This document shows, in pieces, positions 6,500 through 10,158 of a stretch of DNA of 58,443 bases; positions within the stretch are counted from its first letter, which is position 1, and each line of letters begins with the position of its first letter. The DNA comes from Bdellovibrionales bacterium (GTDB taxonomy: Bacteria > Bdellovibrionota > Bdellovibrionia > Bdellovibrionales > UBA1609), in assembly GCA_019695175.1 (NCBI GenBank), contig JAIBAM010000014.1, positions 1 through 58,443 on the forward strand, read 5' to 3'. The position numbers were made by a program, and so were the translations under genes. The notes below the pieces were generated by a model. The model was not told the origin of the DNA, made no database searches, and was given only the letters and a program-made list of their open reading frames with translations.

Positions 6500-7693
6500 T
6501 TATTCTTTTTTAAAGACAAATATAGCATTGGTTCCATCTACCTCATCATCAGAACCCTTGAGGTTATCTTTATAAACAAGTCTAAATCCAGTTCCTTCAG
6601 CTAAACTCTCAATCTCTTCAGGAATGAAACGTTTACTTTGGAAGTGATGAACTCTCGCACCACTTGGTAAGATACCTACCTCAATACCATTATGAAAAAT
6701 TTGAATGTCTCTATTTATAACATAATTGCCTATAATACTCAGTCTTATGGGATCCCAAGTTACCTCGTAGCTAAAGTCACTCGAGTCAAAACCCATGGAA
6801 AGCAATGGACCGAGAGCGACCCTTACTTTTTGGGGAGATCTATATCTTTCAATCAGTTTTTCGATGTTATTGGGGTCATAAGTGACTACAGCTAGAGCGA
6901 AAATTGAGCCACTGGGCGCTATTTCAGAAAGTCTATGTAAAAATTCTCTGCGCGTCCCACTAGGAAAATTTCCGAATGTCTGTCCAAAAAATAGAAATAA
7001 ATTATGAATTATGTTTCCTGGAAGGTTATCTTGAGAATCTTGGTTAATTTTTTTCGCCAGATGAATCATTGCCATTGCAGTAGTTAAGAAATCAACAGTT
7101 GGGTCTACGGTTAAGGATCGTGACATCAGAAACCTATCAGAAAATTTATCACGCACCATTGCTAGTAATGGGTTAGATACATCGACGGGCATATAACATA
7201 TCGGATTAGGACATTTGTTATGAATTCCTTCTATTAAACCCATGGCCGTTTCTCCATCACCAGAACCAAGATCAATAAAATTTAACTTATCATTCCCTTG
7301 AAGGGAGGGTAAAAAATGAAGTTTTAGGAATTCAAGAAATAATTTAATTTCGTATCCTTTAACTTTGCCGAAAGGGTTGTCCAGATTTTGATCAGCGTCG
7401 GGCTTCTGCGGTTCAAAAGCGGTTGACCACGCTTGAGCACCATCCTCTGTAAGGTAGTCTAAAAAAGTGGGAACTACTCTGGAACTTACAAGCGCTCGCA
7501 GATAGGCAAGTGTATGACGACCAAAAGCATCTGGGGCGTTAATAATTTTGGGAGGCGGTTTTTTGGGGTGTAATAGGCCTCTGCATTTTTCATCAGGATT
7601 GGCAAAACCACTTGCGGGGATAATGGTGATGAGAAGTAAACCGGGAAAGATGATGAACGCGATAGTTTGTTTTATGTAACTTTTTGTGACCAA
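6500..7693 (-). CDS. EgtD-like SAM methyltransferase with signal peptide
   Basis: The body resembles the histidine-specific methyltransferase family (EgtD, PF10017). It shows a SAM-binding motif FIDLGSGDGETA at residues 139-150, then YMPVDVSNPLL, then FLFFGQTFGNFPSG, and a C-terminal VHHFQSKRFIPEEIESLAEG that matches the family's ending. The N-terminus (residues 1-31) is a signal peptide or membrane anchor: basic start, core IAFIIFPGLLLITIIPA, likely cleavage after SGFA. SAM is not expected in the periplasm, so an exported enzyme of this type is odd; it may be membrane-anchored facing the cytoplasm, may act in another cell, or may have a new role. It is 397 residues, convergent with proA and has no ergothioneine partner genes nearby. 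The fold call is fairly sure, the substrate unknown. Confidence 0.7.
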   Translation of the reverse strand: MVTKSYIKQTIAFIIFPGLLLITIIPASGFANPDEKCRGLLHPKKPPPKIINAPDAFGRHTLAYLRALVSSRVVPTFLDYLTEDGAQAWSTAFEPQKPDADQNLDNPFGKVKGYEIKLFLEFLKLHFLPSLQGNDKLNFIDLGSGDGETAMGLIEGIHNKCPNPICYMPVDVSNPLLAMVRDKFSDRFLMSRSLTVDPTVDFLTTAMAMIHLAKKINQDSQDNLPGNIIHNLFLFFGQTFGNFPSGTRREFLHRLSEIAPSGSIFALAVVTYDPNNIEKLIERYRSPQKVRVALGPLLSMGFDSSDFSYEVTWDPIRLSIIGNYVINRDIQIFHNGIEVGILPSGARVHHFQSKRFIPEEIESLAEGTGFRLVYKDNLKGSDDEVDGTNAIFVFKKE

Positions 7694-8068: not shown

Positions 8069-8401
8069 CTAATCATCCCCAGTGCGGTCTTTAGTCTCTG
8101 ACTGTAATGGGCTACTGCCTCGCAATTGATCCAGAGTTGAACCCATATTCTTGATTTCATTTTCATAGGCTGAGAAAATGAGGTTTTCCAACTCACTGCG
8201 GGTTTCTTGATTGAGAGGATGGGCAATGTCCTTGAACTGTCCGTCCTTTCTTTTCTTTGAGGGCATGGCCACAAAAAGCCCATCATTACCACGGATTATT
8301 TTCAAATCTCTAATCACAAAACAATTATCTATGGTTATAGTGACATAGGCTTTGAGTCGATCTTCATTTACTGGGAATATTTTAACTTCCGTAAACTTCA
8401 T
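8069..8401 (-). CDS. spoVG: SpoVG family RNA/DNA-binding regulator
   Basis: The 110-residue protein begins MKFTEVKIFPVNEDRLKAYV and contains IDNCFVIRDLKIIRG, LFVAMPSKKRKDGQF, KDIAHPLNQETR, all hallmarks of SpoVG. In Firmicutes SpoVG is a small nucleic-acid-binding protein that affects septation, virulence and RNA stability; Bdellovibrio and some spirochaetes also have it. The start ATG at 8401 has TAGGAG in front. It stands alone, 218 bases downstream of degP on the same strand. Its role here cannot be read from the sequence, but its presence helps to place the organism. Confidence 0.95.
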   Translation of the reverse strand: MKFTEVKIFPVNEDRLKAYVTITIDNCFVIRDLKIIRGNDGLFVAMPSKKRKDGQFKDIAHPLNQETRSELENLIFSAYENEIKNMGSTLDQLRGSSPLQSETKDRTGDD

Positions 8402-8619
8402 AGGTGTCTCCTAGCAGAAAGTCCAACACATGATGATCTCAAGGGGTTGTCACGTTCTTAAACTTGAAGTCATCTGAAGTTTGTTCTTTCAAAGTCTGTT
8501 CTAAAATGGCCAACTCACTACTTAACGGACAAAAGTCTGAAATACTTTAGTCCGTCTTGCTTAAGGGGGAGACTTTGGGAATTGGGCCTCATTTTTGAAA
8601 AGAATCTCATGTGGAGATT

Positions 8620-10158
8620 TTAAAGCTTAATCAAAATGACTTGTCCTTGCTTGAAGACACGGAGGATATTTTGATTTTTTTTGAGGCTTTTGTAGAGCTC
8701 CTCAACTGATGTGACCCTTTTCATGTTCACATCTAGAATCACATCACCAGGAGCTAAGCCAACACGCTCAGCAGGTGAATCCAAATCCACTTGAACCACA
8801 ATGGGACTGGGTTGTCTTAAGCTTGGAATGTCGTATTGCTGTGCCACATCTTCTGAGTAATCGATTGCACTAAAACCTAAATAAAAAGGCGCTTTTTTAC
8901 TGAATGAGGGCTTGGATTTTGTTCCTGGAATTTGATTTATGGAAGAAGGTTGATTTCCCACTTTTACTTTTAGCGCTACTATTTTGTGATTACGTATTAC
9001 TTTCATGGAGACTTCTTTGCCAATCGAAGTTCGGGCAACGAATTTTTGAAACTCATGACTTGATTTGATTTTTTGTCCGTCAACTTCAGTGATAATATCG
9101 TATTCCTTAAGGCCTGCGGCTTGGGCCGGGGAGTTGGGCACGATTTGAACGACCATGGCACCGCTGTTGGCTTTTAATTTTAAATAACTGGCAATTTCTT
9201 CTGTGATGTCTGACATGTGGATTCCAATAAATCCTCTTTTGACGCCGCCCTCTTTTTCCAACTGGGGAAGAATTGTTTTTACATAGTCAATGGGTATGGA
9301 AAATCCAATTCCTTGGGCTTTTGGGTCAATCGCTGTATTGATTCCGATCACAAGTCCTTGGGTATTGACAAGGGGACCTCCGGAGTTTCCCGGATTAATG
9401 CTGGCATCCACTTGAATAAATGGAGCTAAATTGATTTCATCTATTTCTCTTCCAATGGCGGAAACAATTCCTTTGGTCATGGTGTGTCCGTGACCAAAGG
9501 GGTTACCAAAGGCAGCAATCCATTCTCCCACTTGAACATCAGAGCTTGTTCCTAGTCTGGCCACAGCGAGGCGTTTTTTTGTTTCAATTTTGATGAGAGC
9601 CACATCCGTGTTGGCATCTCGTCCAATCACCTTGGCATCAAATTGCTGATCTGTTTTCTCATCCAATTGCACCTTAATAATATTGGCGCCATCTATAACG
9701 TGGTTGTTGGTGAGAATAAGACCGTCTTCACGAATCACAAAACCTGTTCCCAAACTCTGGGCTGGTCTGGACTGACGAGGACCCATAAACTGCTCGAACA
9801 AATCAAAAAAAGGATCTCGCATTTGATTGCGCGGGCCCATATTAAATTGTTTGGGCAAATAAGTTGTAGAGATATTAACCACGGCAGGATTTATAAGTTT
9901 ACCTAATTTTATAAACAGATCGTGGGGAAGGGGTTCTCCCTCTTTGAGTTTGGGGAGCTGATCTGTAACTTGGGCCTCCAACTTTGTAAGAGGGGACTCT
10001 TTCAAAGCTAAGGTCAAAAAATCTGAGCTCCACTGGCTCAGGGAAAGTTGCCAGAAAGCTACGGAGAGAATTCCCGAAATTAAGAAAAAAATAAGAGGAC
10101 GTAAAATTTTTTGAAGAGAGATTTTAGAATTTTTTAAAATATTTGAATTTGTTTTCAT
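8620..10158 (-). CDS. degP: DegP/HtrA-type periplasmic serine protease
   Basis: This 512-residue protein degrades or refolds damaged envelope proteins in the periplasm. Residues 20-42 are an uncleaved-looking signal anchor (PLIFFLISGILSVAFWQLSL). The trypsin-like domain carries the catalytic triad His153 (LTNNHVIDGA), Asp185 (ANTDVALIKI) and Ser259 (INPGNSGGPLVN). Two PDZ domains follow, roughly residues 300-390 (FIGIHMSDITEE, VPNSPAQAAGLKEYDII) and 420-512 (VDLDSPAERVGLAPGDVILD). The Met/Pro/Arg-rich insert near 107-133 fits the loop LA region. The order and length match DegP/DegQ. The gene lies just upstream of spoVG and downstream of the DUF1844 gene on the same strand. Confidence 0.94.
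   Translation of the reverse strand: MKTNSNILKNSKISLQKILRPLIFFLISGILSVAFWQLSLSQWSSDFLTLALKESPLTKLEAQVTDQLPKLKEGEPLPHDLFIKLGKLINPAVVNISTTYLPKQFNMGPRNQMRDPFFDLFEQFMGPRQSRPAQSLGTGFVIREDGLILTNNHVIDGANIIKVQLDEKTDQQFDAKVIGRDANTDVALIKIETKKRLAVARLGTSSDVQVGEWIAAFGNPFGHGHTMTKGIVSAIGREIDEINLAPFIQVDASINPGNSGGPLVNTQGLVIGINTAIDPKAQGIGFSIPIDYVKTILPQLEKEGGVKRGFIGIHMSDITEEIASYLKLKANSGAMVVQIVPNSPAQAAGLKEYDIITEVDGQKIKSSHEFQKFVARTSIGKEVSMKVIRNHKIVALKVKVGNQPSSINQIPGTKSKPSFSKKAPFYLGFSAIDYSEDVAQQYDIPSLRQPSPIVVQVDLDSPAERVGLAPGDVILDVNMKRVTSVEELYKSLKKNQNILRVFKQGQVILIKL

What the first reader, a model, noticed from the sequence alone, without database searches (positions are those of the whole stretch)
6500..7693. EgtD-like SAM methyltransferase carrying a signal peptide
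The fold (SAM motif IDLGSGDGETA, then the EgtD-type ending) is that of a cytoplasmic small-molecule methyltransferase, yet residues 1-31 form a clean signal sequence with SGFA cleavage. SAM is absent from the periplasm. If the leader is real, the enzyme might be membrane-anchored with an inward face, might be delivered into another cell, or might have lost SAM use. None of the ergothioneine partner genes is present.
Basis: partly seen in the sequence, partly recalled or inferred. Interest (0 to 1): 0.6.

Follow-up and report, generated by a model that had tools for sequence, protein, structure and literature searches.

The report
Exported relatives of EgtD in Bdellovibrionota
This gene belongs to a small, apparently undescribed group of SAM-dependent methyltransferases whose Bdellovibrionota members (a phylum that includes predators of bacteria) carry an export signal and a remodelled substrate pocket, which suggests they work outside the cell that makes them, probably inside attacked prey.

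Summary
ORF 6500-7693 (-) encodes a PF10017 methyltransferase (61 bits; cut-off 23) whose predicted fold matches EgtD best, behind an N-terminal Sec-type leader. TTG1 is the only ATG/GTG/TTG start before residue 151, which lies next to the SAM motif, so the leader cannot be dismissed as a mis-called start. It is not solitary. A leader-bearing paralogue (one in-frame TAG) lies in the same genome, and three more relatives occur in other Bdellovibrionota genera. All five have a leader, against 0 of 43 EgtD-like proteins examined. A sixth relative, in a Paraburkholderia with type III secretion genes, has a disordered-looking N-terminus instead. The six split from canonical EgtD on a 100/100 branch and share a pocket switch: SAM-site and amino-acid-backbone residues are kept (Y39, G86, G88, D113, N166, Y206, S284), while histidine-ring contacts are lost (E282 to F in 6/6; T213 lost). 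The genome has no EgtB and has a type II secretin. Best explanation: an exported, non-histidine amine/amino-acid N-methyltransferase that works where another cell's SAM is available, most likely prey. Export and the pocket change are well supported by sequence; delivery, activity and substrate are inferred. SignalP could not be run; the window copy alone has K92 changed to T.

The parts
6500..7693 (-). Complete CDS, 397 aa, TTG start, EgtD-like (PF10017) methyltransferase with an export leader
7601..7693 (-). Sec-type signal peptide, residues 1-31 (likely cleavage after ASG or SGFA; no Cys at +1, so no lipobox)
   Evidence: sequence
6578..7282 (-). PF10017 methyltransferase domain, residues 138-372
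   Evidence: fold match to EgtD
7244..7276 (-). SAM-binding motif IDLGSGDGETA (residues 140-150); the two glycines kept, canonical K92 is T here
6968..6985 (-). GQTFGN motif (residues 237-242); Q replaces the S162 of all 44 canonical EgtD-like proteins, N166 kept
6626..6643 (-). FQSKRF motif (residues 351-356); F replaces the pocket residue E282, S284 kept, K286 replaced by R

Best explanation
The protein is an exported class I SAM methyltransferase of the EgtD (PF10017) fold, one member of a small divergent clade. Shown by sequence: in Bdellovibrionota its members carry a Sec-type signal peptide, and the catalytic domain keeps the SAM site and most contacts for an amino acid's alpha-amino and carboxyl groups but has replaced the contacts for the histidine ring. 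Inferred: after Sec export (and perhaps type II secretion) it reaches a place where SAM of another cell is present, most likely the interior of killed or invaded prey. There it N-methylates a small amine or amino acid other than histidine, perhaps one with a hydrophobic or aromatic side chain because E282 has become F. The product could spoil a prey metabolite or protect something the predator needs.
For: The leader is obligatory: no ATG/GTG/TTG start lies between TTG1 and residue 151. All five Bdellovibrionota members score 10.7-13.6 as signal peptides, against a top score of 7.5 in 43 EgtD-like proteins scored the same way (Fisher p 6e-7, rows not independent). The relatives were found through the catalytic domain, with matched columns starting at 134-137, so the leader did not select them. 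The six proteins split from canonical ones on a 100/100 branch. Pocket switch in 6/6 against 44/44: S162Q, E282F, K286R; kept: G86, G88, D113, N166, Y206, S284. Roles of N166, Y206, S284 and T213 in histidine binding come from PMC8593015. A solved engineered EgtD, M252V/E282A, binds tryptophan (4pip title). Foldseek's top 15 PDB hits are all EgtD. No EgtB; type II secretin present. Paraburkholderia relative: no leader, Ser/Gly/Ala-rich N-terminus, in a genome with HrcV-type type III secretion genes, where it is an extra copy found in 1 of 11 congeners beside an EgtD-like protein in all. Leader-bearing Bdellovibrio nucleases are secreted into the bdelloplast (PMC7925074), and predator proteins are found in killed prey (PMC11003981).
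Against: SignalP was not available; my scorer is crude, and about 25% of sampled ORFs in this genome pass it. The window copy has T for the otherwise invariant K92 (5/6 of the family keep it, 44/44 canonical), so its SAM use may be weaker. The mature N-terminus is basic, which is not ideal for export. Nothing shows that this MAG is a predator. The paralogue has an in-frame TAG, so purifying selection on both copies is not shown. Long branches weaken the tree's inner order.
Confidence: 0.5

Rival explanations
1. Exported but no longer a SAM enzyme: the fold was reused in the periplasm as a binding protein for an amino acid or another ligand.
For: SAM is not known in the periplasm (general knowledge). 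The window copy has K92 changed to T, the paralogue has a stop codon, and the branches are very long.
Against: The SAM-site glycines and D113 are invariant in all six, and N166, Y206 and S284 too. A pure binding protein would not need the cofactor site.
Confidence: 0.2
2. An ordinary periplasmic or outer-membrane enzyme of the producer that methylates an envelope component, using SAM that reaches the periplasm by leakage or an unknown exporter.
For: The leader alone gives periplasmic location; nothing seen here proves a further step outward.
Against: No source of periplasmic SAM is known (general knowledge), and the pocket keeps free-amino-acid contacts. The relative in a type III secretor has no leader.
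Confidence: 0.15
3. A single-pass membrane protein whose catalytic domain faces the producer's cytoplasm; the hydrophobic segment is an anchor, not an export signal.
For: The early mature region is basic in the window copy (net about +2), which could hold it inside.
Against: N-terminal positive charges precede the segment in most members, good -3/-1 cleavage residues follow it, and five of five Bdellovibrionota members show the same short n-h-c plan.
Confidence: 0.1
4. A canonical EgtD of ergothioneine synthesis that picked up a leader by chance or by a wrong start codon.
For: PF10017 and an EgtD fold.
Against: 40 bits against an equivalog cut-off of 290.9; no EgtB; histidine-ring contacts lost in all six; no alternative start; leaders in all five Bdellovibrionota members.
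Confidence: 0.03

Closest known systems
EgtD, L-histidine N-alpha-methyltransferase (TIGR03438, PF10017; PDB 4pim, 4uy5, 7scf)
   Same: Fold, SAM-site glycines and acidic residue, N166/Y206/S284 that hold the amino and carboxyl groups
   Different: Export leader; S162Q, E282F, K286R, T213 lost, Y56 mostly lost; far under the equivalog cut-off; no EgtB in the genome
Engineered EgtD M252V/E282A solved with tryptophan (4pip)
   Same: Loss of the E282 contact
   Different: Laboratory mutant with Ala at 282; here the change is natural and to Phe in all six
Fungal EasF family methyltransferases (TIGR03439)
   Same: Same superfamily; a precedent for a non-histidine substrate (general knowledge)
   Different: 29.5 bits against a cut-off of 205.6; not exported, as far as I know
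Leader-bearing Bdellovibrio nucleases secreted into the bdelloplast (Bd0934, Bd3507; PMC7925074)
   Same: Sec leader, soluble enzyme, same phylum
   Different: Hydrolases that need no SAM; here the enzyme would need the victim's SAM
PbBSMT, a secreted SAM methyltransferase of the clubroot protist (discussed in PMC6604361)
   Same: A methyltransferase proposed to be secreted and to act on a host small molecule
   Different: SABATH family of a eukaryotic pathogen; not the same protein family

Membership tests
PF10017 (Methyltransf_33) superfamily | Profile score over the curated cut-off | tested here: met
   61 bits against 23; the other members 64-88 bits
EgtD (TIGR03438 equivalog) | Equivalog score | tested here: not met
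   40.1 against 290.9 bits
EgtD (TIGR03438 equivalog) | Histidine-ring contacts E282 and T213 | tested here: not met
   F and R in the window protein; position 282 is F in 6/6 of the family, E in 44/44 canonical
EgtD (TIGR03438 equivalog) | EgtB partner gene in the genome | tested here: not met
   No TIGR03440 match in the whole genome, 97% complete
EgtD (TIGR03438 equivalog) | Trimethylation of histidine | not testable with these tools
   Needs an enzyme assay
Class I SAM methyltransferase | GxG motif and acidic residue after strand 2 | tested here: met
   G86, G88, D113 in 6/6; fold match
Class I SAM methyltransferase | K92, invariant in canonical EgtD-like proteins (not a class-wide feature) | tested here: not met
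   T in the window, K in the other five and 44/44 canonical
Sec-exported proteins | n-h-c signal peptide, no alternative start | tested here: met
   crude scorer, not SignalP
Effectors delivered into another cell | Found in or acting in a target cell | not testable with these tools
   Only indirect: type II secretin, type III genes in the genome of the leaderless relative

The most novel reading that the evidence does not exclude
A class of methyltransferase effectors of the EgtD fold that bacteria send into other cells by different routes (Sec leader in Bdellovibrionota, probably type III in one Paraburkholderia), where they use the victim's own SAM to N-methylate an amino acid or amine other than histidine.
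Probability: 0.35. Interest if true: 0.8.

Novelty: new variant of a known kind. Interest (0 to 1): 0.58.

Why it matters
A SAM-dependent enzyme with an export signal has no known cofactor supply in the producer's own envelope, so the family points to an enzyme that runs on another cell's cofactor. If true, it adds small-molecule methylation to the known, mainly hydrolytic, tools of bacterial predators. The natural E282F switch also gives a ready test of how the EgtD pocket changes substrate.

Tried and rejected
Mis-called start: rejected, no other ATG/GTG/TTG start before residue 151. Chance leader: rejected for the family, although about 25% of sampled ORFs in this genome pass the crude score. 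Phage or plasmid origin: tblastn of the window protein in the phage collection and an IMG/VR scan found no relative; plasmids hold only distant egtD-like genes. Ergothioneine role: no EgtB. Hrp box upstream of the Paraburkholderia gene: three TTCG-N16-TTCG matches in the locus, about 1.3 expected, none in front of the gene in its orientation. A shared early cysteine in the mature region as a sorting signal: several leader-bearing ORFs have one, but nothing specific, so dropped. Spread of the exported GAMT-like neighbour in L058: only that genome in the phylum. Literature: no held paper was found that links EgtD or PF10017 with bacterial export; the PF10017 hits are mostly Plasmodium papers in which it looks like a locus-name match (I did not open them). 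The structure model has mean pLDDT 55, so only the fold, not the pocket, was read from it. A first five-row alignment (A5) had a wrong L058 end and was replaced by A6.

Full report
What is there. The minus-strand ORF 6500-7693 is a complete 397-residue gene with a TTG start. Residues 138-372 match PF10017, the EgtD family, with 61 bits against a cut-off of 23, but the EgtD equivalog model gives only 40 bits against 290.9. An AlphaFold2 model from five relatives is of low confidence (mean pLDDT 55), yet Foldseek's top 15 PDB matches are all EgtD structures, ahead of every other methyltransferase. The gene stands alone, facing proBA on one side and followed upstream by a spoVG-like gene (proBA named from my reading of the translations).

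The leader. Residues 1-31 have the n-h-c plan of a Sec signal peptide: two lysines, a 17-residue hydrophobic core, and ASG or SGFA before the break. No cysteine follows at +1, so it is not a lipoprotein. No other segment is hydrophobic enough to span a membrane. In frame, TTG1 is the only ATG, GTG or TTG before residue 151, which is next to the SAM motif. The leader is therefore part of the protein, unless a very unusual start codon is used.

It is a family. The same genome holds a second copy on another contig with its own leader, interrupted by one TAG. Searching the phylum (369 genomes) with a profile of these two gave three further members, in three other genera: a Bdellovibrionaceae MAG (G026, L055), a Bdellovibrio MAG (G098, L058) and a Halobacteriovoraceae MAG (G170, L056). 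The matched columns lay in the catalytic domain, from column 134 on, so the leaders did not drive the search. All three turned out to have leaders. The other 46 genomes with hits have matches of no more than 89 bits, against 400 or more for the family. The 43 EgtD-like proteins that I could score, from this phylum and from the Paraburkholderia group, have no leader: five of five against none of 43, p 6e-7, with the caution that the rows are related.

A telling outlier. The scan of 84,980 species found one more member, in Paraburkholderia sp. NMBU_R16. It has no leader but about 100 residues rich in Ser, Gly, Ala and Pro in front of the domain, as in many type III effectors (inference). That genome has HrcV-type type III secretion genes. 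Of 11 congeners searched, only this one has the variant, on top of an EgtD-like protein that all 11 have; in the one I looked at, that gene lies next to an egtB-like gene (named from my reading). The tree puts the six proteins on one side of a 100/100 branch from 30 canonical ones, although their branches are long and their inner order is not secure.

The pocket. On an alignment with M. smegmatis EgtD, all six keep Y39, G86, G88, D113, N166, Y206 and S284. All six differ from 44 of 44 canonical proteins at S162 (Q), E282 (F) and K286 (R); T213 is lost, and Y56 is kept in only three. In EgtD, Y206, S284 and Y56 hold the substrate carboxylate, N166 holds the alpha-amino group, T213 contacts the ring through a water, and E282 lines the same pocket (PMC8593015). 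The engineered M252V/E282A enzyme was solved with tryptophan (title of 4pip). The natural family thus keeps most of what is needed to hold an amino acid and SAM, and has changed what reads the histidine side chain. The window copy alone has T at K92, which may weaken its SAM site.

Mechanism. A conserved SAM site behind an export signal makes sense if the enzyme ends in a place with SAM. Bdellovibrio nucleases with signal peptides are secreted into the bdelloplast (PMC7925074), and predator proteins are found in killed prey (PMC11003981). The window genome has a type II secretin and no EgtB. I therefore favour an exported N-methyltransferase that uses the victim's SAM on a non-histidine amine or amino acid. 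Steps shown by sequence: leader, family, pocket switch, absence of EgtB. Steps inferred: route across the outer membrane, location in prey, activity, substrate. Whether this MAG is a predator is not known.

Comparison. By membership it belongs to the PF10017 superfamily but fails the tested features of EgtD (equivalog score, ring contacts, genome partner). It works, if active, like a class I amino-acid N-methyltransferase. I found no held paper that describes an exported bacterial member. I rate it a new variant of a known kind.

Noticed in passing
L022:4106-4954 (-), also in L058: In the Bdellovibrio Amazon MAG a second leader-bearing methyltransferase, similar to guanidinoacetate N-methyltransferase (PDB 1xcj, E 2e-19), lies directly upstream of the EgtD-like gene; no other genome of the phylum has it.
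   Followed up: partly
G000:C38:738-1994 (L001): Leader-bearing paralogue of the window gene with a single in-frame TAG in an otherwise open 418-codon frame; decay, or an assembly error.
   Followed up: partly
L055:7646-8146 and 8163-8642: Two short leader-bearing ORFs without a Pfam match follow the EgtD-like gene in the Bdellovibrionaceae MAG; by eye they resemble each other in the first mature residues.
   Followed up: no
L057:10890-12506 (-): 538-residue ORF without any Pfam match, about 4 kb downstream of the Paraburkholderia variant; possible effector.
   Followed up: no
window:7693-8068: AT-rich (30% GC) intergenic stretch before the gene, with an inverted repeat TTTTTGTATACAAAAA that might be regulatory.
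   Followed up: no
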